This document shows positions 4,061-23,960 of a stretch of DNA of 64,000 nt, piece by piece. How positions within the stretch are numbered: the first letter of the stretch is position 1; every line of letters starts with the position of its first letter. The notes under the pieces are model-generated. The model worked only from the letters and a program-made list of their open reading frames with translations. It had not been told where the DNA came from and did not search any database. Source of the DNA: Catellatospora sichuanensis (lineage in GTDB: Bacteria; Actinomycetota; Actinomycetes; Mycobacteriales; Micromonosporaceae); assembly GCF_007483665.1 (NCBI RefSeq), contig NZ_VIQO01000011.1, positions 1-64,000 on the forward strand, written 5' to 3'. The position numbers and the translations under genes are program-made.

Positions 4061-5059
4061 TCAGCCGGCCCGGCGCAGGCGGGCGAGCATGCCGTCGAGG
4101 TCGCGCAGGAACATCTCGTGCCGGAAGTAGTGGCCACCCGGTAGCTCGTGCCACTCGTGGCCGATGCCGGCCTGACCGAGCGCGGCGCGGAACTCGCGCT
4201 GCCCGGCCAGGACCTGCGTCTCGTTGGCGGTGTCGAACCAGTTGATCGGGTCCGGTGACGTCCCGGCCACCAGGAAGATGCGCTTGTTGTGGTAGCTGGG
4301 GATGCGCTGCATCGGGTTGTCGGCGCTGACCCGCGCCTCGTCCCAGAACGGCGCGCCGTAGACGGTGCCGCCGCCGAGGTCCAGCGCGGCGGAGGTGGCG
4401 TTGGCCCAGTGCACCACCAGACCGAAGTCGCGGCGCAGGCTGGCCGGTCCGGAGTGGGCGCTGACGGAGCAGAAGTGGCCGTAGTACTTCGCCGTGTACT
4501 TCAGCGCACCGAAGCCGCCCATCGAGAAGCCGGCGACGGCGCGGCCGTCGTACTCGGCGAACGTGCGGAAGTTCGCCTCCACCCAGGGCAGCAGCTGGCC
4601 GATGTGGAAGGTCTCCCAGTTGCGGGGACCGGAAAGCGACCTGACCGGATTGCTGTACCAGCCGGTGGACGCGTCGGGCATGACGATGATCAGCTCGCGG
4701 CCGGCGGTGAGGTTGACGATGTTGTCCTGCAGGTGGAACGTGCGGAAGTCCGCTCCCCCGCCACCGTGCAGCAGGAAGAGCACCGGGTAGCGCTTGCCGC
4801 TGGTGTGGTAGCCGTCGGGGAGCAGGATGTTGACCGCCGGGTCCCATTCGATGGCGTCGGTGGCGAACCGGTAGTACTGCAGTCGGCCACCGTTCTCGTT
4901 GCGGTCGACGATACGCAGGCCGAAGCCGTCGCCCGCGGCTTGGGCGGGTGTCGCGGCGAACAGGCTCGCGGTGGCGCCGGCGATGCCCGCGGCCGCGGCC
5001 CCGGTGATGAGCCGGCGGCGGCTGACCTGCTGAGGACGTGCGGAAGCGTGGTGGTCCAT
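4061..5059 (-). CDS. Secreted antigen-85-fold / esterase D-like esterase
   Basis: 332 residues from ATG at 5059, with GGAGGAAACC just before it. A TAT signal is clear: SRRRLITGAAAAGIAGA, then a hydrophobic run ending ATPAQA. The mature part is an alpha/beta hydrolase of the Ag85/esterase-D group: oxyanion segment LFLLHGGGGADF, nucleophile Ser in GFSMGGFGALKY, and catalytic His in GGHYFRHEMF near the C-terminus. Family members act on acyl esters at or outside the cell wall. It lies 23 bases downstream of the GH183 gene, so it probably shares its mRNA. In an arabinan locus it could remove mycoloyl, succinyl or other acyl groups from the polymer; this role is inference. Confidence 0.85.
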   Translation of the reverse strand: MDHHASARPQQVSRRRLITGAAAAGIAGATASLFAATPAQAAGDGFGLRIVDRNENGGRLQYYRFATDAIEWDPAVNILLPDGYHTSGKRYPVLFLLHGGGGADFRTFHLQDNIVNLTAGRELIIVMPDASTGWYSNPVRSLSGPRNWETFHIGQLLPWVEANFRTFAEYDGRAVAGFSMGGFGALKYTAKYYGHFCSVSAHSGPASLRRDFGLVVHWANATSAALDLGGGTVYGAPFWDEARVSADNPMQRIPSYHNKRIFLVAGTSPDPINWFDTANETQVLAGQREFRAALGQAGIGHEWHELPGGHYFRHEMFLRDLDGMLARLRRAG

Positions 5060-5082
5060 GGTTTCCTCCAGGTGGCCCGGGT

Positions 5083-6648
5083 TCAGGCGCGGGTGAGGGA
5101 GAAGTCGTCGAGCTGGATCCAGATGTCGCCGTGGTCGGTCCACACGCCGCCGAAGACGGTGACGGCGGTGCGCGAGCCGCTGTTGAAGTTCACGGTGAAG
5201 CGTGTCCACGGCCCGACCGCGTGGAAGTTCGCCTCGGCGATGACCACGTCGTTGGTGCCGCGTACGCCGAAGAAGCCGTTGTCGCTGTTGGGCGAGGTGC
5301 GCAGCCAGCCGCTGAGCTGGTAGTTGGTGTTCGCGGTGACCGGCACGGTCTGGTGCAGGTCGTGCCAGCCGCTGTTGTAGCGGGCGTAGCCGTTGCGCAC
5401 GCCGGTGTAGCCCCAGTAGCCGGCGTCGATGCCGCAGTTGCCCTTGCAGGCCCAGAAGCCGCCGGTGCCGGTGCCGTTGAGCGCGCCGCGCTCGAAGCTG
5501 GCGTCGCCCATGAGGTTCGGGTTGACGACCTGCCCCGCCGTGTTGATCTGGATCTTCATCAGGTAGACGTTGTACGGGTCCCACTGCGACATGGCGAAGT
5601 AGATGTTGCCGCCGGAGCTCCACGGGTGGATGTAGCCGCCGTAGAGGCCCGGGTAGTCGGCGGAGCTGACGACGACCTGTGCGCTGCTCCACGGGCCGGT
5701 GGGGGTGGTCGCGGTGCGCAGGATGATGTCCTCGCCGGACAGGTACATCATCAGCCAGCGGCCGCTGTAGGCGTCGTAGCGCACGGACAGCTCGGAGGCG
5801 GGCGCGCCGACGATCGGCGTGGCGGCGGCGACGTTGTTCGTCACCCAGCTGCTGCCGTTCCAGTACTGGTAGGCGCTCTGGGCCAGCACCTGGGCCTCGG
5901 GGACGCGGGCCAGCCGGATGCTGCCGCTGCGGCCGCTGGGGGTGCCGAAGACGTAGAGGTAACCGCCGCGGCGCTCGAACGCGTGCATCTGGAACTGGTC
6001 GTTGAACGACGGGTTGTTCCAGGTCGGGGTGTTGGTCGTCGACCAGGTCGTGCCGTTGTCGTCGGAGTAGGCGAGCTTGGCGTAGTTGGTGTCCCACTGG
6101 CCGGGGGCGCCCCAGTGGCGGACCGACATGAACGACACGTACTGCCGGGTGCCGACGGCGATGCCCGCCGTGGGGATCTTCGTGACCTCGCCGCCCGCGT
6201 CGTTGCCCTGGTGCAGGCCGGGCAGGATCTCCCGGGCGCGGCCGTCGGCACCGGTGACCGCGCTGGCGAACGACATGCCGTCGGCGAGATTCGTGTCGGT
6301 GGAGCGCAGCAGGACGTTGCTGCGCCAGTTGAGGTCCCCGGCGCCGAACGCGCCGCCGCCGGGGCCGATCCACGCGTCGCCGAAGGTGTCGCCGAACAGG
6401 GCCATCGTCTGGCCGGAGCCGTTGTCCCAGAGGATGCCGAGGTCGGTGGACTTGATGTTCCACCGGCCGTAGGTGTTGTTCGGGGAGCCGACGCCGGTGA
6501 TCTTCTGGACCAGGCTCGCCGGGGTGTGGGCCGAGCTGGCGGCTACCGGTGCGGCGGTGATGAGGCCGGTGGCGGCCACGGTGCCCAGCGTCACGACGAC
6601 GCCGGTCAGGAGACGCGGGATGGATCTGAGCCCGTTGTGCGTGTGCAT
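5083..6648 (-). CDS. Secreted GH183 (DUF4185) putative endo-D-arabinanase with C-terminal carbohydrate-binding module
   Basis: 521 residues from ATG at 6648; GGAG sits 8 bases upstream, so this start is preferred over the ATG at 6666. A Sec signal (residues about 10-38) is followed by a DUF4185 domain (about 45-375). Family features are FGDTFGDAWIG, WRSNVLLRSTD, MSVRHWG and WDPYNV, all shared with the second paralogue at 19568. The last about 130 residues form a beta-sandwich that looks like a carbohydrate-binding module (NYQLSGWLRTS, IWIQLDDFSL). DUF4185 members have been shown to be endo-D-arabinofuranases (GH183) acting on mycobacterial arabinan. It is probably the external depolymerase of the locus. 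Exact linkage specificity cannot be read from sequence. Confidence 0.85.
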   Translation of the reverse strand: MHTHNGLRSIPRLLTGVVVTLGTVAATGLITAAPVAASSAHTPASLVQKITGVGSPNNTYGRWNIKSTDLGILWDNGSGQTMALFGDTFGDAWIGPGGGAFGAGDLNWRSNVLLRSTDTNLADGMSFASAVTGADGRAREILPGLHQGNDAGGEVTKIPTAGIAVGTRQYVSFMSVRHWGAPGQWDTNYAKLAYSDDNGTTWSTTNTPTWNNPSFNDQFQMHAFERRGGYLYVFGTPSGRSGSIRLARVPEAQVLAQSAYQYWNGSSWVTNNVAAATPIVGAPASELSVRYDAYSGRWLMMYLSGEDIILRTATTPTGPWSSAQVVVSSADYPGLYGGYIHPWSSGGNIYFAMSQWDPYNVYLMKIQINTAGQVVNPNLMGDASFERGALNGTGTGGFWACKGNCGIDAGYWGYTGVRNGYARYNSGWHDLHQTVPVTANTNYQLSGWLRTSPNSDNGFFGVRGTNDVVIAEANFHAVGPWTRFTVNFNSGSRTAVTVFGGVWTDHGDIWIQLDDFSLTRA

Positions 6649-6724
6649 GTGCGGTACTCCTTCCATGTCGCGGGCACGCGCAGGCCGCGGGGTGCGGCCC
6701 GCCGTCCCGGTGAACGCGTGCCGG

Positions 6725-7846
<1,122 letters not shown>

Positions 7847-7900
7847 ATGCTCTCCTCGACGATTCGGGGCAGGGCTCGACGGCGGGCAAGGGGCACCGCG

Positions 7901-7914
7901 TGCAATCGATTTCA
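7901..7914. promoter_or_regulatory. LacI-type operator upstream of GH172
   Basis: TGCAATCGATTTCA is a near-perfect palindrome around a central CG. Its core matches the sites at 9039, 20756 and 20825. It lies between the divergent GH172 and LacI genes and could control both. Confidence 0.75.
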
Positions 7915-8019
7915 TTAAGGTAGGGTGAGGGGGCCGCCGTGTCAACGGGTCGCCGACGCCCCGAGCCCCGACGCCCCAGGCTCCACCGGCGGGCAGGCCG
8001 GCCGATCGATGAGGAAGCG

Positions 8020-8997
8020 ATGCCAACGATCTACGAGGTCGCCGCCGCGGCCGGGGTCTCCCCCGCCACCGTCTCGCGCGTGTTCAACGGCGCCAACGTG
8101 TCCCCCGAGAAGGCCGAGGCGGTGCGCAAGGCGGCCAAGGCACTGGCGTTCACGCCGAGCCGCACCGCGCGCACCCTGCGGTTGCAGAGCTCCGAGGTGA
8201 TCGCCCTGGTCATCCCGGACATCGAGAACCCGTTCTTCACCGCGCTGGCGCGCGGCGTCGAGGACGTGGCCCGCGCCGCCGGCTACTCGGTGGTGCTGTG
8301 CAACACCGACGAGGACCACGAGAAGGAACTGGTCTACCTCGACATCGCGCTGAGCGCCACCATGGCCGGCGTGATCATCGCGGCCGCGGGCGGCAACAGC
8401 GACCTGAGCGGCCTGCTCGCCCGCAAGTGTCCGGTGGTGGCGGTCGACCGCAGCCCGCACGGCGTGGACGTCGACGCGGTCATCGTCGACAACCGGGCTG
8501 GCGGCCGTGCGGCCACCCATGCCCTGGTGGAGCAGGGTTTTCAGCGGATCGCGTGCATCACCGGCCCGAGCGACGTCGAGACGGCCACCCAGCGCGCCGA
8601 CGGCTGGCGCGACGCGGTCACCACCGGCCGGCCGGCCGAGGCCGACGACCGCTACCTGCGCTACGCCGACTTCCGCGTCGACGGCGGCGCGGCGGCGATG
8701 AGCGAGCTGCTCGCCCTGCCCGAGCCCCCGGACGCGGTGTTCGTCGCCAACAACCTGATGAGCGTCGGCGCCCTGCGGGTGCTGTCCGAGCAGGGCAAGC
8801 TCCCCCCGGCTACCGGGGTGGCCGTCTTCGGCGACCTGCCCTTCCTGCCGCTGGTGCCGATCCCGATCACGGTCGTGCACATGCCGGCCCGGCACCTGGG
8901 CATCACCGCCGCGAAACTGCTGCTGGAGCGCATCAAGGGCGACGACCAGCCGGCCCGCACCATCGTGCTGCGCAACCAGGTGAGCCCCGTCGGCTGA
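8020..8997 (+). CDS. LacI-family transcriptional regulator of the arabinan locus
   Basis: 325 residues from ATG at 8020, with GAGGAAG just upstream. An upstream in-frame extension is Arg/Pro-rich and not protein-like. The N-terminal LacI HTH is textbook: TIYEVAAAAGVSPATVSRVFNG, with the hinge near residues 48-60. A periplasmic-binding-like sugar domain follows (VIALVIPDIENPFFTALARGVEDVARAAGYSV; GFQRIACITGP; PDAVFVANNLM). It is divergent from GH172 and directly upstream of the FGGY kinase unit. The four similar palindromes in this locus are its likely operators. The inducer is presumably a D-arabinan-derived sugar, which is inference. Confidence 0.92.
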   Translation: MPTIYEVAAAAGVSPATVSRVFNGANVSPEKAEAVRKAAKALAFTPSRTARTLRLQSSEVIALVIPDIENPFFTALARGVEDVARAAGYSVVLCNTDEDHEKELVYLDIALSATMAGVIIAAAGGNSDLSGLLARKCPVVAVDRSPHGVDVDAVIVDNRAGGRAATHALVEQGFQRIACITGPSDVETATQRADGWRDAVTTGRPAEADDRYLRYADFRVDGGAAAMSELLALPEPPDAVFVANNLMSVGALRVLSEQGKLPPATGVAVFGDLPFLPLVPIPITVVHMPARHLGITAAKLLLERIKGDDQPARTIVLRNQVSPVG

Positions 8998-9038
8998 GAC
9001 CCCCGAGCGACACTCGAGATGTCGGTAGTGCTTGACGG

Positions 9039-9052
9039 TGAAATCGATTTCT
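9039..9052. promoter_or_regulatory. LacI-type operator in the kinase promoter
   Basis: TGAAATCGATTTCT contains the perfect 12-base palindrome GAAATCGATTTC (9040-9051). It sits right after a TTGACG (9032-9037), which resembles a -35 box; CAGGGT at 9055-9060 would be a -10 at 17-base spacing. Bound repressor would block polymerase. The putative start point would be next to the ATG at 9067, so the mRNA may be nearly leaderless. Confidence 0.75.
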
Positions 9053-9066
9053 GACAGGGTACGGGC

Positions 9067-10590
9067 ATGTTGAGGCAAGCCTGTGTCCTCGGCGTCGACA
9101 TCGGAACGTCGAGCAGTAAGGGCGTACTCGTCACGCTCGACGGCACGATCGTCGCCACCGCCACCCGCGAGCACGAGGTGCGCCGGCCCGCGCCGGGGCA
9201 CGTCGAGATGGACGCCCACGTCTGGTGGGACGAGGCTGCCGGCATCATCCGCGAGCTGCTGGCCGCGCCCGGTGCGCCCGCGCCCGGTCAGGTCCGCTCC
9301 GTCGGCGTGAGCGGGATGGGCCCGTGCGTGCTGGTCACCGATCTCGCGGGCCAGCCGCGCCGGCCCGCGATGCTCTATGGCATCGACACCCGCGCGACCG
9401 AGCAGATCGAGCGACTGACCGAGCGGCTCGGCGGGGCCGACACGATCCGCGAGCGCTGCGGCTCGTCGCTGAGCACGCAGGCGGCCGGGCCGAAGTTGGC
9501 GTGGCTCGCCGACAACGAGCCCCAGGCGGTCGCCGGCGACTGGCGCTTCTTCCAGCCCAGCACGTGGCTCGGCTGGCAGCTGACCGGGACCTACTACCTC
9601 GACCACCACTCGGCCAGCCAGTGCACACCGATGTACGACGCGAACGTGCAGGACTGGTACGGCCCCTGGGCGGGCGAGGTCGCCGCCGGGGCGCAGCTGC
9701 CGCCGTTGGTCTGGCCCGGCGACACCATCGGCGGCGTGTCGGCTGCGGCTGCCGCCGAGACGGGGCTCGCCCCGGGCACTCCCGTCATCGCGGGCACGAT
9801 CGACGCCTGGTCCGAGGCGATCAGCGTCGGCGCGCACCGGGTCGGCGACCTGATGCTGATGTACGGCACCACCATGTTCCTCATCAACACCGTGGACAAG
9901 CCGCTGACCTCGCCGACGCTGTGGGGCACGGTCGGCGCGCTGCCCGGCACCCGCAACCTCGCCGGGGGGATGGCCACCTCGGGCGCGATCACCGGATGGC
10001 TGCGCGAGCTGTTCGGCTCCCCCGGCTATCCGGAGCTGCTGGCGCTGGCCGACGCCGCCGGGCCGGGCGCGAACGGGCTGCTCATGCTGCCCTACTTCGC
10101 CGGTGAGCGGACCCCGGTCGCCGATCCCGACGCGCGCGGCGTGCTCGCCGGGCTCACCGTCGCGCACACCCGCGGCGACCTCTACCGGGCGGCGCTGGAG
10201 GCGACGGCGTTCGGCGTACGCCACAACGTCGCCGCGATCGAGCAGGCAGGCGGACACGTCGAGCGGATCGTCGCCGTCGGCGGCGGCGCGCAGGGCAGCC
10301 TGTGGACCCAGATCGTGTCCGACGTGACCGGACGCCCGCAGGCCATCCCCGCCAAGACGATCGGGGCCGCCTTCGGCGCCGCGTTCCTCGCTGCCGGTGC
10401 TGTCGCCGATCCCGACATCGACCTGTGGAACCCGATCCTCGAAGCACGGACCCCGCAGCCGTCGGTCCGCGCCGACTACGACGAGCTCTACGCGCTCTAC
10501 CTGGAGCTGTATCCGGCCACCGCGCCGACCGTGCACGCCCTCGCCGCTCGCGAGCGGCACCGCGCCACCGGTCGACGTCCCGCCCCGTGA
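9067..10590 (+). CDS. FGGY-family pentulose kinase (D-ribulo-/xylulokinase-like)
   Basis: 507 residues. Actin-like kinase fold: phosphate loop LGVDIGTSSSKGVLV at the N-terminus, HVEMDAHVWWDEA, VIAGTIDAWSEAISVG in the middle (substrate Asp region), and GGGAQGSLWTQIVSDVTGRP near the C-terminus (FGGY adenosine signature). Length is normal for xylulokinases and related pentulose kinases. It starts the operon with GH116 and a fucose/arabinose-type isomerase. In the proposed pathway it phosphorylates D-ribulose formed from D-arabinose, giving an entry to the pentose phosphate pathway. Xylulokinase activity is the main alternative and cannot be excluded. Confidence 0.88.
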   Translation: MLRQACVLGVDIGTSSSKGVLVTLDGTIVATATREHEVRRPAPGHVEMDAHVWWDEAAGIIRELLAAPGAPAPGQVRSVGVSGMGPCVLVTDLAGQPRRPAMLYGIDTRATEQIERLTERLGGADTIRERCGSSLSTQAAGPKLAWLADNEPQAVAGDWRFFQPSTWLGWQLTGTYYLDHHSASQCTPMYDANVQDWYGPWAGEVAAGAQLPPLVWPGDTIGGVSAAAAAETGLAPGTPVIAGTIDAWSEAISVGAHRVGDLMLMYGTTMFLINTVDKPLTSPTLWGTVGALPGTRNLAGGMATSGAITGWLRELFGSPGYPELLALADAAGPGANGLLMLPYFAGERTPVADPDARGVLAGLTVAHTRGDLYRAALEATAFGVRHNVAAIEQAGGHVERIVAVGGGAQGSLWTQIVSDVTGRPQAIPAKTIGAAFGAAFLAAGAVADPDIDLWNPILEARTPQPSVRADYDELYALYLELYPATAPTVHALAARERHRATGRRPAP

Positions 10591-10702: not shown

Positions 10703-13294
10703 ATGCCTGTGCACCCTGAAAGCGCTCCCCCGGCCGCGCGGGGGCTCGGCCCGGACGCGTCCGCCGCGGCCTTCCCGCTCGGCGGGATCGGCACCGGCAA
10801 CGTGTCGATCGGCGCGCGCGGCGAGCTGCGCGACTGGGAGCTCGCCAACCGGCCGGCCAAAGGCGCGCGGCTGCCGTTCTCCTTCTTCGCGATCCGCGCA
10901 GAGCCTGCAGGCGGCGTGCCCGTCACCCGCATCCTGGAGTCGCGGCTGACCGGACCGCACGAAGGCGACCAGGGCTACTACGCCGGGCAGCTGGCCGGGC
11001 TTCCGAGACTGCGCGCGAGCCGGATGCACGGCGAGTATCCGCTGCTGCGGGTCGACTTCGCCGACGACGACCTCGGCGTGCAGGTGGCGCTGACCGCGTT
11101 CACGCCGCTGGTGCCGCTGGACGCGGACGCCTCGGGCATCCCCGGCGCGGTGCTGCGCTACACGGTGACCAACCCAATCGCTGTCGCGGCCGACGTGACC
11201 GTCGTCGGCTCGCTGGCCAACCCGATCGGCATCACCGGATACGACGTGCACCACTTCCCGCGTTACGCCGGGCGACCGGCGAACGCCTGGGCCGACGCGG
11301 ATGGGCTGCACGGCATCCGGTTCACCAGCGACCTGCCCGACGACGACCTGCGACACGGCACCGCGGTGCTGGCCACCACGGACACCAGGACGACGGCCAA
11401 GCCGCAGTGGCTCAGCGGCTTCTGGCAGGACGGCGTCCAGGTGTTCTGGGACGAGCTGAGCACCGCCGGGCGGCTGACGCCGGAGACCGCGTTCAGCCTG
11501 GACGAGCCCCCGTACCCGGACTGGTTCACGCGGCTGCGGGTGGGTTCGCTCGCCGTCGACCACCGGATCGCCCCGGGTGCGAGCCGGGACTTCGAGTTCC
11601 TGCTCACCTGGCACTTCCCGAACCGCCCGAGCGCCTGGCAGGGCAACATCAATCTGGACGGCACGCGGGCCGGTGAGGTGGTCCGCAACCACTACGCCAC
11701 CGCGTACGCCGACGCCTGGGCCGCCGCCCGCCGCCTCGCCGCCGACCTGCCGGAACTGGAACGGCACACCCGCGCGTTCCACGGGGCCCTGTTCGGCGGC
11801 ACGCTGCCGCCGGAGGTCGTCGACGCGGTCAGCTCGACCCTGGTCGTGCTGCGCAGCACCACCTGCTTCCGGCTGACGGGCGGTCGCTTCGCCGCCTGGG
11901 AGGGCAGCTTCGACGACGCCGGCAGCTGCGAAGGCACCTGCACGCATGTATGGAACTACGCCCAGACCGCCGCGTTCCTGTTCCCGGAGCTGGAACGCGA
12001 CGCCCGGCGCACCGAGTTCGTGCACGAGACCCGGCCCGACGGCCGGATGAACTTCCGCGCCAACAGCGTCTTCGGCAACGCGCCGTGGGACTTCCACCCC
12101 GCGGTCGACGGGCAGCTCGGCGCGATCGTGCGGCTGCACCGCGAATGGCGGTTCAGCGGCGACGACGAATTCCTGGCCGCCTGCTGGCCGGGCGCGCAAC
12201 GGGCGCTGGAGTACGCCTTCACCACGTGGGACGCCGACGGCGACGGCGTGCTGGACAGCCAGCAGCACAACACCTACGACATCGAGTTCCACGGGCCGAA
12301 CTCGCTGGCGAACTCGATGTTCTTCGCGGCCCTGACCGCCGGTGCGGCCATCGCCGACCGGATGGGCGACACCTCGTCCGCGCAGCGCTACCGCGCCGCG
12401 GCCGCGACGGGCGCGTCCCGGATGGACGCGCTGCTGTTCAACGGCGAGTACTACGAGCAGCAGCTCGACGACGTCGACGCCCGCCGCTACCAGTACGGCA
12501 CCGGATGCCTGTCCGACCAGGTGTTCGGCCAGCTCCTGGCGCACGTCGCGGGGCTGGGCCACGTCCTGCCCGCCGAACACGTGCGCAGCGCCGTCGCCGC
12601 GGTCCACCGGCACAACTTCCGCGCCGACCTGGGCGGCCACCACAGCGTCCAGCGCACCTACGCCCTCAACGACGAGGCGGGACTGCTGCTGTGCTCCTGG
12701 CCGCGCGGCGGCCGCCCGCGCATCCCGTTCGTCTACAGCGACGAGGTGTGGACCGGCATCGAGTACCAGGTGGCCACCCACCTGGTCTTCGAAGGGCTGG
12801 TCGACGAGGGCCTGCAGCTGGTCCGCGCGGTGCGCGCACGGCACGACGGCCGGCGGCGCAACCCCTGGAACGAGGTCGAGTGCGGCAACCACTACGCCCG
12901 CTCGCTGGCGAGCTGGGGCCTGGTCGTCGCGCTCAGCGGCGCGGACTACGACGCCACCGCGCGCACCCTCGCCTTCGCCCCGCGCTGGGGCGGCGACCGG
13001 CTACGAACGATCTTCACCACCGGCACCGGCTGGGGCGAGCTGACCCTCTCCCCCGGCGGCGCACAGCTGCGCCTGCTCGGCGGCCGGCTCGACCTGGACA
13101 CCCTCACCGTCGCCCACCCCGTGCTCGGGCCGCTGGCCGCGGGCCCGGTCCGGCTCACCGCGGGCGACGCCGTACCGCTCACCGCCCCTGACCCCTCGAT
13201 CGGAAGGACCGACCATGACGAGTTATCTCCTGCCCGCGCCGTCGCAGCGCCCGCCGGCGTCGCCCCGCACCGTCTACACGATCGCCAGCGGTGA
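10703..13294 (+). CDS. GH116-family glycosidase, putative exo-beta-D-arabinofuranosidase
   Basis: 863 residues from ATG at 10703, with GGAGG eleven bases upstream. GH116 (GBA2-type) features: FPLGGIGTGNVSIGARGELRDWEL at the N-terminus, nucleophile region GSCEGTCTHVWNYAQ (about residues 408-422), acid/base region HNTYDIEFHGPNS (about 522-535), and WTGIEYQVATHL. There is no signal peptide, so it is intracellular. GH116 covers beta-glucosidases and beta-xylosidases, and exo-beta-D-arabinofuranosidases were found in a Microbacterium arabinan system. Here the partners GH172 and GH183 favour the last. Its 3' end overlaps the isomerase start by 80 bases, unusually long for this operon. Confidence 0.85.
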   Translation: MPVHPESAPPAARGLGPDASAAAFPLGGIGTGNVSIGARGELRDWELANRPAKGARLPFSFFAIRAEPAGGVPVTRILESRLTGPHEGDQGYYAGQLAGLPRLRASRMHGEYPLLRVDFADDDLGVQVALTAFTPLVPLDADASGIPGAVLRYTVTNPIAVAADVTVVGSLANPIGITGYDVHHFPRYAGRPANAWADADGLHGIRFTSDLPDDDLRHGTAVLATTDTRTTAKPQWLSGFWQDGVQVFWDELSTAGRLTPETAFSLDEPPYPDWFTRLRVGSLAVDHRIAPGASRDFEFLLTWHFPNRPSAWQGNINLDGTRAGEVVRNHYATAYADAWAAARRLAADLPELERHTRAFHGALFGGTLPPEVVDAVSSTLVVLRSTTCFRLTGGRFAAWEGSFDDAGSCEGTCTHVWNYAQTAAFLFPELERDARRTEFVHETRPDGRMNFRANSVFGNAPWDFHPAVDGQLGAIVRLHREWRFSGDDEFLAACWPGAQRALEYAFTTWDADGDGVLDSQQHNTYDIEFHGPNSLANSMFFAALTAGAAIADRMGDTSSAQRYRAAAATGASRMDALLFNGEYYEQQLDDVDARRYQYGTGCLSDQVFGQLLAHVAGLGHVLPAEHVRSAVAAVHRHNFRADLGGHHSVQRTYALNDEAGLLLCSWPRGGRPRIPFVYSDEVWTGIEYQVATHLVFEGLVDEGLQLVRAVRARHDGRRRNPWNEVECGNHYARSLASWGLVVALSGADYDATARTLAFAPRWGGDRLRTIFTTGTGWGELTLSPGGAQLRLLGGRLDLDTLTVAHPVLGPLAAGPVRLTAGDAVPLTAPDPSIGRTDHDELSPARAVAAPAGVAPHRLHDRQR

Positions 13295-14867: not shown

Positions 14868-14907
14868 GACGGGCCGGCGACCTTGGATCCAAGGTCGCCG
14901 GCCCGTC
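14868..14907. terminator. Perfect 40-base palindromic bidirectional terminator
   Basis: Two 20-base arms (14868-14887, 14888-14907) form a perfect inverted repeat centred on GGATCC and followed by GTTTG. It lies between the convergent isomerase (ends 14852) and mannitol-dehydrogenase-family (ends 14927) genes. Confidence 0.9.
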
Positions 14908-17153: not shown

Positions 17154-18119
17154 CTAGCCGTCGATGGCTTTGTCGGAGTTGACGAGTCTGAAGATCACCA
17201 GCGAGATCGCGCCGAGCACGACGAACAGCATCAGCGACGCGGTGAGCGAGAAGCTGGTGGCGTACGGCGTCAGGTCGCGGAAGCTGTTGAAGATGTAGAG
17301 GTTCGGCGTCGTGGTCGCGTCGACCGGCCCGCCGTTCGTCATGATCAGGGGCAGCTCGAACAACTGGATCGCCAGCGTGAAACCGGTGACGAACAGGTAG
17401 AGCAGCACGTTCTTCAGCAGCGGGATGGTGATGCGGAACAGCCTCTGGAAGAAGCCGGCCCCGTCGAGCTGCGCCGACTCGTAGTAGTTCTCGGGGATGT
17501 CGAGCAGCCCGGCCAGCAGGATGAGCGTGGTGATGCCGAAGCTGAGCCAGATGCCCGGCACGGCGATGGCCGGCAGCGCGTAGCCGGGGTCGTTGAGCCA
17601 GTTGACCGGGCCGCTGTTGAGCAGGCCGAGCATCCAGTTGATGACGCCTTCGTCCTGGTACATGAACACGAACAGGACCGAGGCGACCACCGTGGAGACG
17701 ACGGCGGGCAGGTAGACGGTGGTCTTCATGTACGCCGCCGCGCGTCTGCTCAGCGTCTTGATGAAGCTGGCCAGCAGCAGCGCGATGACGATGCCGGTCG
17801 GCACGGTGAGCAGCGCGTAGTAGAGGCCGACCCAGATCGACTCCCAGAAGCGCGGGCTGTCCAGCACGTACTGGTAGAAGTCCAGGCCGACGAACTCCGG
17901 CTCCTCGTAGAAGCTGATTTTGAAGGTGCTCAGGTAGACCGAGTAGATCAGTGGCCACACCACGAAGATGCTCAGCAGCACGACCATCGGGGCGATCATC
18001 AGGTACGCGGTGCGGTTGTCCCGGCGGTGGCGGGCCAGGAGCCGCCGACGGTCGCGTTGCGCGACGCCGTCCGGGGCCGGGTCCGCCGGCACGGCGACCC
18101 GGGAGTCGAGAGCGGTCAT
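17154..18119 (-). CDS. Carbohydrate ABC transporter permease (MalF/UgpA type)
   Basis: 321 residues from ATG at 18119, chosen because GAGGGGATT precedes it; an earlier ATG gives an Arg-rich extension. Six membrane segments start at about residue 42 (YLMIAPMVVLLSIFVVWPLIYSVYLS). The coupling motif is YYESAQLDGAGFFQRLFRITIP. It pairs with the MalG-type permease 17 bases downstream and probably imports arabinan-derived oligosaccharides. Confidence 0.93.
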   Translation of the reverse strand: MTALDSRVAVPADPAPDGVAQRDRRRLLARHRRDNRTAYLMIAPMVVLLSIFVVWPLIYSVYLSTFKISFYEEPEFVGLDFYQYVLDSPRFWESIWVGLYYALLTVPTGIVIALLLASFIKTLSRRAAAYMKTTVYLPAVVSTVVASVLFVFMYQDEGVINWMLGLLNSGPVNWLNDPGYALPAIAVPGIWLSFGITTLILLAGLLDIPENYYESAQLDGAGFFQRLFRITIPLLKNVLLYLFVTGFTLAIQLFELPLIMTNGGPVDATTTPNLYIFNSFRDLTPYATSFSLTASLMLFVVLGAISLVIFRLVNSDKAIDG

Positions 18120-18188
18120 CGTCAATCCCCTCGAAGAGCGGTGCCCGGGACGCCGAACGCGCGACCCGGGCACCGGAGTCCGGCACGC

Positions 18189-19511
18189 TTACTTGGGCGC
18201 AGTCCCGGCCAGCGACTGCTTCTTGATGACGTCGTCGATGGCGGCCGCGGCCGTCTTCAGCGACGTCGGCACGTCGGCCTTGCCCTTCATCGCCGACTCG
18301 ATGGCGGTGCCGAACGCGAGCGAGATGTCCCACGGGTACGCGGGCTCCTGCTTGCCGTAGGGCACGACCTTATCGGAGATGACCTTCATGAAGGGGTCCG
18401 ACGAGGCGTCGGGGTTGCTCGCCAGCGCCTGGTCGACCGAGGTGCGCACGGTGTACTTGGAGAACCCGCTCGTCTTGAAGAAGTCGGCCATCAGCGCCGG
18501 GTCCCCGGCGAGCAGGTACTTGACGAAGTCGGCGGCCTGCTGCTTGCCCTTGGACTTGGCGTCGACGGTCAGTGTCCAGCCGCCCAGGGTCGCGGTCGTC
18601 TTGGCGGGGTCGCCGTCGACGGACGGGAACGGGGCCACCGCGGTCTTCGGGACCATCGCCTTGAAGTCGTTCTTGAGCTGGCCGATCACCCACGAGCCGC
18701 CCGCCATCATCGCGACCTCGCCCTGACCGTACGGCGCCCCGTCGGCGTAGCCGACCTTCGGCGTCTTGGGGATCAGGCCGTTCTGGTAGAGCGTCTTGTA
18801 GAAGGTCAGCAGCTTCTCGAAGCACGGCTCGGTCGCCGTCGACTTGGACCAGTCGTCGTTGACCGGCAGCCGCCCGCAGGCGTTGTACTGCAGGCCCCAG
18901 CTGGACCAGCCGAGGTCGGGCCCGGCGGAGGCGATGGTCATGCCCTTCACCTTGCCCTGGGTCAGCTTGGTCGCCCAGGTGATCAGCTCGTCCCAGGTCC
19001 TGGGCGGGCTGGCCGGATCCAGGCCGGCGGCGGTCACCAGGTCGGTGCGGTAGTACAGCACCGTCGACGGCTCGACCAGCATCGGGTACGCGTAGTGCTT
19101 GCCGCCGACCGTGACGAAGCCCTTGACGTTGTCCTTGATGTCGGTGAACGCCGCGGCGGGCAGCAGGTCGTCGAGCGCGGCGAACTGTCCTTGGGCCACA
19201 CCGGGCGCGACGTTGCCGTAGCTGGTGGTCGCGATGTCGGGGGCCTTGCCGGCGGCCTGCGCCGCCTTGAGCTTCTGCGCCCAGGTGTCGGCCGGCACGA
19301 CCTGCAGGTCGACCTTCACCTTGTCCTGCGAGGCGTTGTACTGGTCCACATGCTTCTTGAACCAGGCCTGCTGGTAGTCCTCGAACTTCTGCTGCCAGAA
19401 CGTGACGGTGGTCTTGCCGGCCGGGTCCTCACTCCCGCCACCGCATCCGCTCAACGCGGTGGACGCAGTGACAGCTGCTATCGCGAGCAAAACTATGCCG
19501 CGTCTGCGCAT
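18189..19511 (-). CDS. Sugar ABC transporter substrate-binding lipoprotein
   Basis: 440 residues. A strong ribosome site (GGAGGAGGAG) precedes ATG at 19511. The lipoprotein signal RRRGIVLLAIAAVTASTALSGC gives Cys22 as the anchored residue. The mature domain is a family 1-type solute-binding protein: VTFWQQKFEDYQQAWFKKHV, ALDDLLPAAAF, RTDLVTAAGLDPASPPRTWDEL, MMAGGSWVIGQLK, QQAADFVKYLLAGDP. It captures the sugar outside and delivers it to the two permeases downstream. The ligand is inferred from context as D-arabino-oligosaccharide. Confidence 0.93.
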   Translation of the reverse strand: MRRRGIVLLAIAAVTASTALSGCGGGSEDPAGKTTVTFWQQKFEDYQQAWFKKHVDQYNASQDKVKVDLQVVPADTWAQKLKAAQAAGKAPDIATTSYGNVAPGVAQGQFAALDDLLPAAAFTDIKDNVKGFVTVGGKHYAYPMLVEPSTVLYYRTDLVTAAGLDPASPPRTWDELITWATKLTQGKVKGMTIASAGPDLGWSSWGLQYNACGRLPVNDDWSKSTATEPCFEKLLTFYKTLYQNGLIPKTPKVGYADGAPYGQGEVAMMAGGSWVIGQLKNDFKAMVPKTAVAPFPSVDGDPAKTTATLGGWTLTVDAKSKGKQQAADFVKYLLAGDPALMADFFKTSGFSKYTVRTSVDQALASNPDASSDPFMKVISDKVVPYGKQEPAYPWDISLAFGTAIESAMKGKADVPTSLKTAAAAIDDVIKKQSLAGTAPK

Positions 19512-19567
19512 CGCTCCTCCTCCTGCTGCGACCCGCGACCGGGGCGCAGTTCGTCATAATGCCTGCG

Positions 19568-20692
19568 TCAGGCTTTGCTGACCAGGTCGGCCCGGTACCA
19601 GAAGACGTTGTACGGGTCCCAGACCGAAAGCGTGAAATAGATGGTTCTGCCCCCGTCCGCGGTGTACCGCGGGAGCATGTACGGCGAGTAGAGCCCCGGC
19701 ACGTCGACCGAGGAGACCAGGGTGATCGCGTCACCCCAGGGTCCCCACGGCGTCAGGCCCTCGCGCAGGCTCGCGCCGGCTCCCCCACCGTTGGTGTAGG
19801 ACATCAGCCACCGGGACAGGTGCTTGTTCCACACCACGGACAACTCGCCGACGGTGTCGTCGACGATCGTGCGTGCGGCGGCAGGATCGCTCGACCAGAG
19901 CGGCGAACCGTCGGCGCCGGTGCCGGCGAAGTACCGGTAGGCACCGGACTGCTCGACCTGCGCCGGCGCGACCTTCATCAGCTGCACGCCACCGAAGCGG
20001 CCGTGCGTGACGCCCCAGAAGTAGAGCTCTCCGTCGACCTCGGCGACGCTGACCTGGACGAAGTTGCCGTCCCCGGGCCAGTGCGGCGCGGCGAGCTTGG
20101 TCCAGGTCTGCCCCTGATCGGTGGACTTGGCCAGGCCCGCGTGGTTCACCTCCCACTCGCCCGGCTCGCCCCAGTGGCGGACGGACATGTAGGCGAGGTA
20201 CATCGCGCCTGCGGCGGCGAACCCGTAGGTCGGGATCACCGTCATCTCGCTGAAATCGACCTTCTCGGAACCGAGCAGTTCCTTGGCCCGACCCTGCTCG
20301 TCGACGATGAAGCCGTCCAGCGTGATCCCGTCGGCCGGGTCGGTGTCGGTGGTGTAGGCCAGCGCGTTGGAGCGCCACTGCTCGCCACCGCCGCCGGTGA
20401 AACCCGGCGCCCGCTTGCCGAACGTGTCGCCGAAGACGAACCACACCTTGCCGTCGGACTCGAACATCGACCCCAGGTCGGTGCCCGCGATCGCGGCGCG
20501 GTCGGTGCGGTTGGGCGAGTCCGGGCCGGTGAGCTGCGCGACCCGGTGCACATCGGTCACGCCCGCCAGCACGAAGGGCAGGTCTTGCGGCGGGTTCATC
20601 TGACCCCCTCTGGTGGAGCAGCCGGTGGACGCGACCACGACGGCGAGGATCAGTGCCGCCGTCCCGTCACGACGTGGGCGGCGGAATTTCAT
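19568..20692 (-). CDS. Second GH183 (DUF4185) protein, lipoprotein-type putative endo-D-arabinanase
   Basis: 374 residues from ATG at 20692. The signal ends ILAVVVASTGCS, a lipobox, so the enzyme is probably anchored outside the membrane. DUF4185 features match the paralogue at 5083: FGDTFGKRAPG, WRSNALAYTTDTD, MSVRHWG and WDPYNV near the end. It lacks the C-terminal carbohydrate-binding module. It is the first gene of the importer operon (56 bases before the binding protein), suggesting a surface enzyme that trims polymer next to the transporter. A GAAATCGGTTTC operator lies 64 bases upstream. Confidence 0.87.
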   Translation of the reverse strand: MKFRRPRRDGTAALILAVVVASTGCSTRGGQMNPPQDLPFVLAGVTDVHRVAQLTGPDSPNRTDRAAIAGTDLGSMFESDGKVWFVFGDTFGKRAPGFTGGGGEQWRSNALAYTTDTDPADGITLDGFIVDEQGRAKELLGSEKVDFSEMTVIPTYGFAAAGAMYLAYMSVRHWGEPGEWEVNHAGLAKSTDQGQTWTKLAAPHWPGDGNFVQVSVAEVDGELYFWGVTHGRFGGVQLMKVAPAQVEQSGAYRYFAGTGADGSPLWSSDPAAARTIVDDTVGELSVVWNKHLSRWLMSYTNGGGAGASLREGLTPWGPWGDAITLVSSVDVPGLYSPYMLPRYTADGGRTIYFTLSVWDPYNVFWYRADLVSKA

Positions 20693-20755
20693 GCGCGTTG
20701 CCGGCACGTGTCCGCCCTTCTCGTCGGGAGCAGGATGGCTAGCAGTGAACCGCAG

Positions 20756-20767
20756 GAAATCGGTTTC
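20756..20767. promoter_or_regulatory. LacI-type operator upstream of the transporter operon
   Basis: GAAATCGGTTTC differs by one base from the perfect palindrome found at 9040 and 20825. It is the copy nearest the GH183-transporter operon. Confidence 0.65.
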
Positions 20768-20824
20768 GTCAAGAGCCGCCCAACCCCTGCTCAACTGACC
20801 TCGGAAAACCTTGTCCAACAGCGC

Positions 20825-20836
20825 GAAATCGATTTC
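20825..20836. promoter_or_regulatory. LacI-type operator upstream of GH38
   Basis: GAAATCGATTTC is a perfect palindrome, identical to the site in the kinase promoter. It lies 82 bases before the GH38 start, in the divergent gap shared with the GH183-transporter operon. Confidence 0.75.
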
Positions 20837-20918
20837 AAGATCCTGGGCCGCAGCGGTATGGGTGTGCGGTTAGGATCGCCGTGGACGGCCCCCGATTCAG
20901 CCACCCTGCGAGGTCCTG

Positions 20919-23900
20919 ATGCACGACGACCGCGTTCTGGTCGAGCAGCGGCTGCGGCGGCTGCTGGCCGAACGGATCCGCCCCGCGATCCACTCCGCGA
21001 CGGCCGCGCTGACGGTCCACGTCTGGCACGCCCCCGGCGAGCCGGTCCCGTTCACCGAGGCTGCCGCCGCGCGATACCGGCCCACGGCCCACGGGGACCG
21101 GTGGGGTGCGCCGTGGGGCACGTCCTGGTTCCGCATCACCGGCACCGTCCCGGCCGACTGGGCCGGGCGTGCGGTCGAGGCGCTGGTCGACCTGGGTTTC
21201 GAGGCTGACCGCCCAGGATTTCAGTGCGAGGGCCTGGCGTACGCCCTCGACGGCCGGATCGTCAAAGGACTCCACCCGCGCAGCGGACACCTGCCCGTCG
21301 CCCGCCCCGCCCACGGCGGCGAGGCGGTGGGCTTCCTCGTCGAGGCGGCGGCCAACCCGCTGATCGACCTCCCGTGGGGCCGGACCGCGCTGGGCGACCG
21401 CGCCACCGCCGGCGCCGAGCCGCTGTACCGGCTCGGCCGGATCGAACTGGCGGTCTTCGAACGGCAGGTGTGGGAACTCGTCCAGGACCTGGAGGTGCTC
21501 GCCCAGCTGATGGCTGAGCTGAGCCTGCACGACGCGCGCCGGTTCGAGATCCTGCGCGCCGTCGAACGCTGCCTGGACGTGACCGACCTGTCCGACGTAC
21601 CCGGCAGCGCCAGCGCCGCCCGCGACCAGCTGCGCGAGGTGCTGTCGCGCCGTGCGCACGCCAGCGCGCACCGGATCTCGGCGGTCGGCCACGCACACAT
21701 CGACACCGCCTGGCTGTGGCCGCTGCGCGAGACCGTACGCAAGGTCGCCCGCACCACGGCCAACGTCACCGCGCTGATGGACGAGCACCCGGACTTCCGC
21801 TACGCGATGTCACAGGCGCAGCAGCTCGCCTGGATGAAGGAGCACCAACCGCAGCTGTACGCGCGCATCAAGGAGCACGTCGCAGCGGGCCGGTTCATCC
21901 CCGTGGGCGGCATGTGGGTCGAATCGGACACCAACCTGCCCGGCGGGGAGTCCCTGGCCCGCCAGCTCGTGCACGGCAAGCGCTTCTACGCCCAGGAGTT
22001 CGGACTCGACACCCAGGAGGTGTGGCTGCCCGACTCGTTCGGCTACAGTGCGGCACTCCCGCAGCTCATGCGGCTCGCGGGCGTACGGTGGTTCCTGACG
22101 CAGAAGCTCTCGTGGAACCAGACCAACCGCTTCCCGCACCACACCTTCGACTGGGAGGGCATCGACGGGAGCCGGGTCTTCACCCACTTCCCGCCGGTGG
22201 ACACCTACAACAGCGAGCTGTCGGCCGCGGAACTGGCGCACGCGGCGCGCAACTTCGCGGAGAAGGGCCGGGCCACCCATTCGCTCGTGCCGTTCGGCTG
22301 GGGCGACGGCGGCGGCGGCCCCACCCGGGAGATGATCGCCCGGGCACGGCGGACCGCGGACCTGGAAGGATCGCCGCAGGTGACCATGCGCTCACCCGCG
22401 GCGTTCTTCCGGGCCGCGCAGGCGGAGTACCCGCATCCGCCGGTGTGGGCGGGCGAGCTGTACCTCGAACTCCACCGGGGCACGTACACCAGCCAGGCGC
22501 GCACCAAGCGCGGCAACCGGCGCAGCGAGCACCTGCTGCGCGAAGCCGAACTGTGGGCGAGCACCGCGGCCGTCGCGGGGCTGGCCGAGTACCCGTACGA
22601 CGACCTGGACCGGCTGTGGAAGACGGTGCTGCTGCACCAGTTCCACGACATCCTGCCGGGCAGCTCGATCGCCTGGGTGCACCAGGAGGCCGAACAGACC
22701 TACCGCCGGGTGTGCGAGGAGCTGGAACGGATCATCGACGGCGCACAACGTGCCCTGGCCGGGCCCGGCAGCACTCCGGTGCTGTTCAACGCCGCGCCCC
22801 ACGCCCGCGACGGATTGCCCGCGATGGGTGCGGCCCTGGCCGACGGTGGTACACACGACCCGTCCGCGCCGGTGACCGCCATCGCCGGTGTCGAAGGGAT
22901 CGTGCTGGACAACGGTCTGCTCCGTGTGCGCGTGGACCCCACCGGAGAGATCTCGTCCTTGATCGATCTGCGGGCCGGACGGGAGGTCGTTCCGCACGGG
23001 CTGGCGGCGAACCTCGTCCAGCTGCACCCGGACGTGCCCCACGCCTGGGACGCCTGGGAGATCGACGCGCACTACCGCAACACCACCATCGAGGTCCTGG
23101 CCGAGGAGGTCCGCCTGGACACTGAGGCTGCGGACGAATGCGTGGTGCGGACGGTGCGCCGGTTCGGCCGGTCGTCGATGGTCCAGTGGATACGCCTGGC
23201 GGCCGGGCAGCGCAGCCTCGACATCGACACCGAGGTGTCCTGGCGCGAGAGCGAGCAGATCCTCAAGCTCGGATTCGGCGTCGATGTGCTCACCGACCGG
23301 GCGACCGCCGAGATCCAGTACGGGCACGTGAACCGCCCTACACACGCCAACACCTCGTGGGACGCCGCCAAGTTCGAGATGTGCGCCCACCGGTGGCTGC
23401 ACGTGGGCGAGCCGGGCTACGGGGTGGCGCTGCTCAACGACGGCACCTACGGCCATGAGGTGACCCGGGTCCGGGATGCGCACGGCCGGACGGCGACCAC
23501 GGTGCGGGTCTCCCTGCTGCGGGCGCCGCGCTTTCCCGACCCCGGCACCGATCAGGGCTCCCACCGGTTCCGGCACGTGCTGCTGCCCGGCGCCGACATC
23601 GTCGACGCGGTCCGTGGCGGATACCACCTCAACCTGCCGGTACGCCGGGTCATGGGCGGGCGTCCGGTCGCGCCCCTCGTCGGTGTCGACCACGACGGCA
23701 TCGTCGTCGAGGCGGTCAAGCTGGCCGACGACCGCACCGGCGACGTCGTGGTCCGGTTGTACGAAGCCCGCGGGAGTCAGACGGCCGCACGGCTGAGTTT
23801 CGCCCGGCCGGACGCCACCGCGCGCCGCACCGACCTGATGGAGAACCCGCTGGGCGACGGCGACCTGCCACAGCTGCGCGACGGGTCTGGTGTCACCCGC

Positions 23901-23960
23901 GTCGACCTGCGGCTTCGTCCGTTCCAGATCCTCACCGTCAGGTTCACCCGGCACGCGTAG
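20919..23960 (+). CDS. GH38 alpha-mannosidase
   Basis: 1013 residues from ATG at 20919. GH38 features: zinc-binding VGHAHIDTAWLWPLRET near residue 257, YAMSQAQQLAWMKEHQP, and WLPDSFGYSAALPQL, whose Asp near residue 371 is the nucleophile. FPHHTFDWEGIDGSRVFTHFPP and later VLLHQFHDILPGSSIAWVHQEAE are also typical, followed by the C-terminal beta domains. Length fits bacterial GH38. There is no signal peptide, so it acts in the cytoplasm on imported manno-oligosaccharides. Its operator links it to the arabinan regulon; the mannan core and mannose caps of lipoarabinomannan are a natural substrate, by inference. Confidence 0.95.
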   Translation: MHDDRVLVEQRLRRLLAERIRPAIHSATAALTVHVWHAPGEPVPFTEAAAARYRPTAHGDRWGAPWGTSWFRITGTVPADWAGRAVEALVDLGFEADRPGFQCEGLAYALDGRIVKGLHPRSGHLPVARPAHGGEAVGFLVEAAANPLIDLPWGRTALGDRATAGAEPLYRLGRIELAVFERQVWELVQDLEVLAQLMAELSLHDARRFEILRAVERCLDVTDLSDVPGSASAARDQLREVLSRRAHASAHRISAVGHAHIDTAWLWPLRETVRKVARTTANVTALMDEHPDFRYAMSQAQQLAWMKEHQPQLYARIKEHVAAGRFIPVGGMWVESDTNLPGGESLARQLVHGKRFYAQEFGLDTQEVWLPDSFGYSAALPQLMRLAGVRWFLTQKLSWNQTNRFPHHTFDWEGIDGSRVFTHFPPVDTYNSELSAAELAHAARNFAEKGRATHSLVPFGWGDGGGGPTREMIARARRTADLEGSPQVTMRSPAAFFRAAQAEYPHPPVWAGELYLELHRGTYTSQARTKRGNRRSEHLLREAELWASTAAVAGLAEYPYDDLDRLWKTVLLHQFHDILPGSSIAWVHQEAEQTYRRVCEELERIIDGAQRALAGPGSTPVLFNAAPHARDGLPAMGAALADGGTHDPSAPVTAIAGVEGIVLDNGLLRVRVDPTGEISSLIDLRAGREVVPHGLAANLVQLHPDVPHAWDAWEIDAHYRNTTIEVLAEEVRLDTEAADECVVRTVRRFGRSSMVQWIRLAAGQRSLDIDTEVSWRESEQILKLGFGVDVLTDRATAEIQYGHVNRPTHANTSWDAAKFEMCAHRWLHVGEPGYGVALLNDGTYGHEVTRVRDAHGRTATTVRVSLLRAPRFPDPGTDQGSHRFRHVLLPGADIVDAVRGGYHLNLPVRRVMGGRPVAPLVGVDHDGIVVEAVKLADDRTGDVVVRLYEARGSQTAARLSFARPDATARRTDLMENPLGDGDLPQLRDGSGVTRVDLRLRPFQILTVRFTRHA

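What the first reader, a model, noticed from the sequence alone, without database searches (positions are those of the whole stretch)
4061..23960. Candidate D-arabinan (mycobacterial cell-wall arabinan) utilisation locus in an actinomycete
The sequence shows two DUF4185/GH183 proteins, DUF2961/GH172, GH116, GH38, an Ag85-fold esterase, a CUT1 importer, a fucose/arabinose-type isomerase, an FGGY kinase, a polyol dehydrogenase and a LacI regulator together. GH183 endo-D-arabinanases, GH172 exo-alpha- and GH116 exo-beta-D-arabinofuranosidases are known from published arabinan degraders (Dysgonomonas, Microbacterium). Here endo enzymes carry export signals while exo enzymes do not, giving a consistent cut-import-trim design. 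That the host eats arabinogalactan or lipoarabinomannan is inference.
Basis: partly seen in the sequence, partly recalled or inferred. Interest (0 to 1): 0.9.

Follow-up and report, generated by a model that had tools for sequence, protein, structure and literature searches.

The report
Mycobacterial-wall eating and lysis regulon
A soil actinobacterium carries a complete gene set for cutting, importing and digesting the D-arabinose polymer of mycobacteria-type cell walls, and the same DNA switch that marks these genes also sits in front of secreted wall-dissolving enzymes elsewhere in its genome, which suggests that it dissolves such bacteria and feeds on them.

Summary
Window 4061-23960 of a Catellatospora genome is a D-arabinan utilisation locus like the one proved in Microbacterium arabinogalactanolyticum: its GH183, GH172 and GH116 proteins are 59, 83 and 56% identical to the crystallised enzymes and keep every tested active-site residue. 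As a feeding locus it is a new member of a known kind.

Three findings go beyond that. (1) A palindrome, GAAATCGATTTC, lies before its transcription units. With one mismatch allowed it occurs at 12 places in 9.45 Mb: four here, and two directly before secreted peptidoglycan-hydrolase genes at two distant loci. (2) Those hydrolases and a giant GH172 share a beta-propeller tail. (3) The window's esterase lies within 11 kb of a GH183 gene in 23 of 39 Micromonosporaceae genomes that hold both, often beside such hydrolases.

Most likely one LacI regulon couples dissolution of arabinogalactan-bearing walls to feeding. The host lacks the Emb arabinosyltransferase, as do all 76 GH183 carriers among 354 family genomes, so the target is probably foreign. 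Regulation, activity and prey are inferred, not shown.

The parts
4061..5059 (-). EST: secreted (twin-arginine signal, by eye) PF00756 esterase; substrate unknown, candidate for ester groups of the acid-fast wall
   Evidence: linked to GH183 in 23 of 39 genomes
5083..6648 (-). GH183A: secreted endo-alpha-D-arabinanase with C-terminal binding domain, EndoMA1 type
6725..7843 (-). GH172: cytosolic exo-alpha-D-arabinofuranosidase, ExoMA1 type (GTG start assumed)
7902..7913 (.). operator 1, GCAATCGATTTC, in the divergent GH172/LacI promoter region
8020..8997 (+). LacI-family regulator, presumed to bind the operators
   Evidence: position conserved
9040..9051 (.). operator 2, GAAATCGATTTC, 27 bp before the kinase gene (start to start)
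9067..10590 (+). FGGY pentulose kinase (XylB-like), presumed D-ribulokinase
10703..13294 (+). GH116 exo-beta-D-arabinofuranosidase, ExoMA2 type, cytosolic
13215..14852 (+). ISO: L-fucose/D-arabinose isomerase-type enzyme, presumed D-arabinose to D-ribulose
   Evidence: in 8 of 8 tested carriers of the close GH172
14868..14907 (.). perfect inverted repeat between convergent ISO and MDH, likely two-way terminator
   Evidence: core 14880-14895 scored; outer arms read from the sequence
14927..16318 (-). MDH: polyol dehydrogenase (DalD/mannitol 2-dehydrogenase type), overlaps the end of the permease gene; role unassigned
16315..17136 (-). ABC permease 2 (called by operon position and orthologues; no family scan of it was run)
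17154..18119 (-). CUT1-type ABC permease 1
18189..19511 (-). sugar-binding lipoprotein of the importer
19568..20692 (-). GH183B: second endo-D-arabinanase, lipobox by eye; about 40% identical to EndoMA1, all 8 tested residues kept
20756..20767 (.). operator 3, GAAATCGGTTTC, divergent GH183B/GH38 promoter region
20825..20836 (.). operator 4, GAAATCGATTTC, divergent GH183B/GH38 promoter region
20919..23960 (+). GH38 alpha-mannosidase without signal; candidate decapping enzyme for imported mannose-capped arabinan oligosaccharides; only GH38 match of the genome

Best explanation
The locus is a D-arabinan utilisation system and the feeding half of a larger LacI regulon that takes apart walls of arabinogalactan-bearing (mycolata-type) bacteria. 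Outside the cell, secreted GH183A and lipid-anchored GH183B cut D-arabinan and an esterase removes some ester. Also outside, a lysozyme-like enzyme and an amidase (contig C21), and an M23 endopeptidase and a giant GH172 (contig C25), all with one kind of beta-propeller tail, attack the peptidoglycan and arabinan of the same wall. The ABC importer takes up oligo-arabinosides; cytosolic GH38 removes mannose caps, GH116 beta-Araf and GH172 alpha-Araf. ISO turns D-arabinose into D-ribulose and the kinase makes D-ribulose 5-phosphate. LacI is assumed to leave its operators when an arabinan product is present. Shown: homology, active-site residues, gene order, operator placement, shared tails, linkage of EST to GH183, lack of Emb in the host. 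Inferred: activities, the regulator-operator bond, repression, the inducer, the prey, and the roles of EST, GH38 and MDH.
For: Enzymes; residues. Same gene set, with variation, in 3 other Catellatospora, Rugosimonospora, Hamadaea, Micromonospora avicenniae, Leifsonia, Agromyces and a Cryobacterium MAG. Operator: 12 genomic sites with at most 1 mismatch, 0 for the reversed pattern. Four are the window sites; C21:44890 is 71 bp before the lysozyme-like gene and C25:55991 is 139 bp before the M23 gene (site start to first start codon of the ORF). Five of these six sites keep the core AATCGATT (the window site 20756 reads AATCGGTT); none of the other six does. In 36 EST loci (622 kb) the operator gives 26 hits in 13 loci, each of 19 permuted palindromes 0; in 20 PUL loci 60 hits in 19, best control 1 (related species, so hits are not independent). 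It lies between the facing genes of 6 of 6 giant-GH172 cassettes (some sites fall inside over-long ORF starts, but in L158 both lie before the ATG that precedes the signal peptide). Tails: Amidase_2, M23, lysozyme-like and giant GH172 proteins of the own genome all carry FG-GAP repeats; M23 and GH172 tails are 55% identical over 296 columns. EST within 11 kb of GH183 in 23 of 39 genomes with both, three of them with only an EST fragment (0.16 expected by random placement; kinship not corrected). Emb family PF04602 absent from the own genome; 2 of 354 family genomes have it, neither a GH183 carrier. Phage records with GH183: 11; the 10 with a named host are Rhodococcus or Gordonia phages, some proteins called lysin A (two phages are listed twice).
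Against: No activity, binding or growth was measured. EST orthologues outside the family (15 loci of 14 genomes) lie beside a GH183 in 1 and beside a hydrolase of these types in 1 at the cut-off; a second, L229, has an M23 protein below it. So EST need not be specific for this wall. Inside the family 10 of 34 near-full-length EST loci have neither (two of these, L176 and L181, end near a contig end). The 12 GH183C-type cassettes in Micromonospora have no operator at 1 mismatch (one, L164, has it at 2), so they are regulated otherwise. Operator conservation at the two own-genome lysis loci could not be tested in other Catellatospora, and whether the giant-GH172 Micromonospora carry such a LacI was not tested. 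One further operator-like site (C4:85524) lies before PL8/GH20 genes. GH38 is missing next to the locus in C. methionotrophica (L005). Peptidoglycan hydrolases can act on many prey. Only Emb was tested for self arabinan.
Confidence: 0.68

Rival explanations
1. Plain D-arabinan feeding locus of the Microbacterium kind; the lysis enzymes elsewhere are general peptidoglycan scavengers and share the operator by accident or through a different LacI paralogue.
For: The core genes match the published locus (PMC10509167). Twelve Micromonospora cassettes with GH183C have no operator at one mismatch.
Against: Two of eight non-window operator sites in 9.45 Mb fall 71 and 139 bp before the two lysis loci; permuted palindromes give none there; in L159 the lysis genes share a promoter region with a LacI gene beside ISO; in L172, L173 and L192 lysis genes and PUL genes are neighbours.
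Confidence: 0.2
2. Self-wall turnover: the enzymes remodel an arabinan of the host's own wall, as GH183 may do in mycobacteria.
For: Micromonosporaceae walls are described as containing arabinose (recalled); mycobacteria keep their own GH183 enzymes (PMC10115798).
Against: No Emb in the host nor in any of the 76 GH183 carriers among 354 family genomes; GH183 is patchy (76 of 354); importer, isomerase and kinase point to feeding; a sister species has a decayed copy (L125).
Confidence: 0.06
3. The substrate is another D-arabinofuranose or fructan glycan (for example pilin or LPS arabinan, difructose anhydrides), not the mycolata wall.
For: GH172 includes an alpha-fructofuranosidase (PMC10509167); some GH183 enzymes cut pilin oligosaccharides (PMC10115798).
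Against: GH172 has Asn254 where the fructofuranosidase has Gly (Gly299 from the paper); GH183A keeps EndoMA1's binding-domain contacts unchanged in 8 of 10 positions; the shared operator with peptidoglycan hydrolases and the linkage of the esterase point to a whole bacterial wall.
Confidence: 0.06

Closest known systems
D-arabinan PUL of Microbacterium arabinogalactanolyticum (PMC10509167)
   Same: GH183 endo-enzymes, GH172, GH116, ABC importer, isomerase and kinase; 59%, 83% and 56% identity to EndoMA1, ExoMA1 and ExoMA2 with the tested residues kept.
   Different: The parts of that paper that I read (1-4 of 8) do not describe an esterase, mannosidase, polyol dehydrogenase or shared lysis regulon, and a word search of its main text found no esterase, mannosidase, GH38, arabinitol or Micromonospora; its figures and supplements were not seen. 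Whether GH183B belongs to one of its other GH183 clades was not tested.
PUL42 of Dysgonomonas gadei (PMC10115798)
   Same: DUF2961 and DUF4185 enzymes on D-arabinan, and a fucose isomerase abundant during growth on it.
   Different: Bacteroidota system; only parts 1-3 of 9 and passages were read.
Mycobacteriophage LysA/LysB lysis pair (PMC5707550, start of abstract only)
   Same: Works like it: peptidoglycan hydrolase plus esterase, with GH183 added; phages of Rhodococcus and Gordonia also carry GH183.
   Different: Secreted by a free-living bacterium and coupled to feeding; homology of EST to LysB was not tested and EST activity is unknown.
UmbA lectin tails of Streptomyces umbrella toxin particles (PMC11062931, passages)
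   Same: The FG-GAP tail matches a chain of PDB 8w20, an entry that paper names (E 1.2e-8 and 3.7e-10); the paper calls UmbA tails beta-propeller lectins proposed to bind target cells.
   Different: Here the tail is fused to wall hydrolases and to GH172, not to a trypsin-like adaptor. That the matched chain is UmbA is inferred; its label is 'Secreted esterase'.

Membership tests
Gram-positive D-arabinan PUL | secreted GH183 with catalytic Asp33, Asp51 and Glu243 | tested here: met
   GH183A D69, D87, E286; GH183B D72, D89, E283; export signals judged by eye
Gram-positive D-arabinan PUL | GH172 with Asn253 (arabinose over fructose) | tested here: met
   Asn254, 83% identity to ExoMA1
Gram-positive D-arabinan PUL | GH116 with Glu431, Asp557, His446 and Arg483 | tested here: met
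   E400, D526, H415, R452 (paper numbering is 4 less than the count used, spacing checked)
Gram-positive D-arabinan PUL | ABC sugar importer, isomerase and kinase | tested here: met
   isomerase fold by Foldseek; no ATPase gene seen in the locus
Gram-positive D-arabinan PUL | induction by D-arabinose or mycobacterial wall extract | not testable with these tools
   no expression data
L-fucose/D-arabinose isomerase family (ISO) | fold of the family | tested here: met
   model pLDDT 87.2; best matches L-fucose and D-arabinose isomerases, E about 2e-18, but TM 0.5 and rmsd 23, so the domain arrangement differs
L-fucose/D-arabinose isomerase family (ISO) | metal-binding active-site residues | not tested
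   no residue-level alignment to a solved isomerase was made; phmmer finds none at E 0.001
Antigen 85 mycolyltransferase family (EST) | closer to Ag85/Cmt1 than to other PF00756 esterases | tested here: not met
   ferulic acid esterases rank far above Cmt1 among solved structures
Mycolyl-arabinogalactan esterase | releases mycolate from the wall | not testable with these tools
   only gene context
One LacI regulon of PUL and lysis genes | same operator before both sets, rare elsewhere | tested here: met
One LacI regulon of PUL and lysis genes | LacI binds and represses | not testable with these tools
   no binding data

The most novel reading that the evidence does not exclude
Some Micromonosporaceae are specialised consumers of mycolata. 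One LacI switch, released by D-arabinan products, turns on a secreted acid-fast-wall lysis kit (lysozyme-like enzyme, amidase, M23 endopeptidase, GH183 or giant GH172, and a wall esterase), several parts aimed by a shared beta-propeller tail, together with import and catabolism of the released arabinan. It would be a free-living bacterial counterpart of phage LysA/LysB that also feeds on what it dissolves.
Probability: 0.6. Interest if true: 0.87.

Novelty: new variant of a known kind. Interest (0 to 1): 0.74.

Why it matters
The genes for enzymes that cut mycobacterial D-arabinan were only identified in 2023 (PMC10115798, PMC10509167). A natural, co-regulated set that pairs peptidoglycan hydrolases, arabinanases and an esterase under one switch would show how soil bacteria can dismantle acid-fast cells, would suggest substrates for several orphan groups (the FG-GAP-tailed hydrolases, giant GH172 proteins, this esterase clade), and would make bacterial predation on mycolata directly testable in a harmless actinomycete.

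Tried and rejected
In-frame TGA codons reported in five GH172 homologues looked like recoding; in the frames read, the matches only run a few residues past the true stop. AlphaFold of EST with four near-identical rows failed (pLDDT 34.9) and was not used. GH38 as a core part: a close GH38 (87-92%) lies at the locus only in the window, L003 and L004; kept as an accessory because it shares the operator region. MDH as the sole route for D-arabinose in M. avicenniae, where isomerase and kinase are missing from the locus: rejected, since the isomerase is elsewhere in that genome; the kinase was not sought there. My first count of arabinan genes near EST was inflated by tail-to-tail matches and was replaced by a domain-restricted count for the family loci. 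The first GH116 residue mapping used a wrong offset and was redone. EST as a strict marker of arabinan degradation across actinobacteria: rejected, the context is absent from most loci of other families. Print searches for a Micromonosporaceae PUL or lysis kit showed none in their listings; apart from the three papers named only listings and abstract starts were seen, and the library is open-access only.
Full report
What is there. The window lies on contig C7 of a 9.45-Mb genome. The closest relatives of its GH116 are from Catellatospora vulcania, C. coxensis and C. methionotrophica, and three genomes labelled 'same genus' by the search have contigs of exactly the lengths of those records, so the host is a Catellatospora. 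By position they form four groups: GH172-GH183A-EST (minus); LacI (plus, divergent) and kinase-GH116-isomerase (plus); GH183B-binding protein-permease-permease-dehydrogenase (minus); and GH38 (plus, divergent). A perfect inverted repeat separates the convergent isomerase and dehydrogenase genes.

Do the enzymes fit D-arabinan? GH183A is 59% identical (278 of 475 aligned) to EndoMA1 over the catalytic and the C-terminal domain. It keeps Asp33, Asp51, Glu243, Arg198, Trp138, Pro141, Leu292 and Tyr293, and 8 of 10 ligand-contact positions of the C-terminal domain unchanged; the other two are Phe379 (Tyr here) and Asn366, which the paper takes for a crystal-packing contact (unaligned here). GH183B is 40% identical (127 of 320) and keeps the same eight catalytic-domain residues. 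GH172 is 83% identical (306 of 367) to ExoMA1 and has Asn254 at the position of Asn253, which blocks fructose. GH116 is 56% identical (454 of 808) to ExoMA2 and keeps Glu431, Asp557, Arg483 and His446 (residue roles from PMC10509167, parts 1-4 of 8 read). The isomerase has no solved relative by sequence; its model (pLDDT 87.2) matches L-fucose and D-arabinose isomerases best, with a differing domain arrangement. It is present in all 8 tested genomes that have the close GH172 and in none of the 3 others tested. I therefore take D-arabinan as the substrate as well supported, about 0.93.

Is it foreign or self? The own genome lacks the Emb arabinosyltransferase family PF04602, while the control Corynebacterium glutamicum has it. 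Of 354 Micromonosporaceae genomes 2 have PF04602, and neither has GH183. GH183 at E 1e-15 or better occurs in 76 of 354; GH172 of at least 84% identity in 11 of 354, the own genome included. A Catellatospora sister (G087) keeps the kinase, LacI, both operators and 30 codons of GH172; GH183, EST and the isomerase were not found in that genome. It looks like a decayed locus.

The operator. The palindrome GAAATCGATTTC or a one-mismatch variant lies at 7902, 9040, 20756 and 20825, in the promoter regions of all four groups. In the 20 PUL loci scanned it gives 60 hits in 19 loci, against at most 1 for each of 19 permuted palindromes. In the whole own genome there are 12 sites at one mismatch and none for the reversed control. 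Besides the four in the window, one lies 71 bp before a lysozyme-like gene followed by an amidase gene on C21, and one lies 139 bp before an M23 endopeptidase gene on C25 that faces a giant GH172 gene. Of the other six, one lies between PL8 and GH20 genes, one about 100 bp before a gene that looks like purQ (recalled) and inside a weak ORF, one at the start of a small ORF, and three inside ORFs. None of these six has the core AATCGATT, which five of the six kit sites have; the sixth, at 20756, reads AATCGGTT.

The lysis enzymes. The C21 and C25 proteins have export signals by eye, and all four carry FG-GAP repeats: Amidase_2+FG-GAP, M23+FG-GAP, an N-domain without a Pfam match (lysozyme-like by motif, recalled)+FG-GAP, and DUF2961+FG-GAP. 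The M23 and GH172 tails are 55% identical over 296 columns. The same tail on peptidoglycan hydrolases and on a GH172 protein suggests one composite target. The tail resembles a chain of PDB 8w20, an umbrella-toxin entry; the paper describes UmbA tails as beta-propeller lectins. In other genomes some of these hydrolases have DUF346 repeats in place of FG-GAP.

The esterase. EST homologues at E 1e-30 or better, fragments included, occur in 49 of 354 family genomes, and 39 of these also have GH183. The two lie within 11 kb in 23 of 39 (three of these, G163, G190 and G261, hold only an EST fragment), far apart on one contig in 10, and on different contigs in 6. Random placement would give 0.16; related species are not independent, but five genera contribute. 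I fetched 36 of these EST loci; of 34 with near-full-length EST, 23 have a tailed peptidoglycan hydrolase within 9.5 kb, 20 an arabinan-family hydrolase, 19 both, and 10 neither. Micromonospora cassettes come in two forms with a similar layout: GH183 or giant GH172 facing a row of lysozyme-like, amidase, M23 and EST genes, not every gene being present in each. All 6 with giant GH172 have the operator between the facing genes; of 12 with GH183C none has it at one mismatch. In L172 and L173 cassette genes stand beside the PUL, in L192 beside a more distant version of it, and in L159 beside LacI and the isomerase. Outside the family (15 loci of 14 genomes from a class scan of 394) EST is near a GH183 in 1 and near such a hydrolase in 1, or 2 with a weaker M23 match. 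So EST probably serves wall lysis here, but its substrate is open; I give mycolate or succinate about 0.35.

Mechanism and limits. Secreted GH183, esterase and tailed hydrolases open the wall; oligo-arabinosides are imported, trimmed by GH38, GH116 and GH172, isomerised and phosphorylated. The dehydrogenase goes with the importer in the seven sequences aligned, the window's included, and in L115. It fits D-arabinitol or a related polyol, but its step is not assigned. Nothing was measured. The regulator-operator bond, the inducer and the prey are inferences.

Known or new. The feeding locus is a new member of the published kind. The link by operator, gene neighbourhood and shared tail to a secreted lysis kit was not found in print in the searches listed, which cover one open-access library and of which I saw mostly listings. 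That is why I rate the whole a new variant.

Noticed in passing
window 25272-29653 (-): ABC half-transporter pair, one half fused to siderophore-interacting and FAD-binding domains, resembling the mycobacterial IrtAB siderophore importer (recalled); next to the arabinan locus.
   Followed up: partly
window 33747-39166: Beta-helix/CBM6, pectate lyase and GH43-CBM35 genes, looking like plant-pectin degradation.
   Followed up: no
L125 5686-8483 (G087, Catellatospora): Decayed arabinan locus: kinase, LacI and operators kept, GH172 cut to 30 codons, GH183, EST and isomerase not found in that genome.
   Followed up: partly
phage records MT521992, NC_042040, PV467702 and others: GH183 homologues in 11 phage records; the 10 with a named host are Rhodococcus or Gordonia phages, several proteins annotated lysin A.
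   Followed up: no
L044 1966-18280 (Cohnella thailandensis): Firmicutes cluster with two GH183-like genes, GH116, GH172 and a GH127-like gene: a possible further arabinan locus type.
   Followed up: partly
L010 6438-7586 (-): Very distant DUF4185 relative (43 bits, cut-off 39.5), lipoprotein-like by eye, beside GH172 in a PUL.
   Followed up: no
L167 11197-12582 (-); also L168, L187, L189, L230: Second PF00756 esterase (EST2) that recurs near EST and, in L167 and L189, near GH183.
   Followed up: no
G000 C4:85524: Operator-like site between PL8 and GH20 genes; may belong to another LacI regulator.
   Followed up: partly
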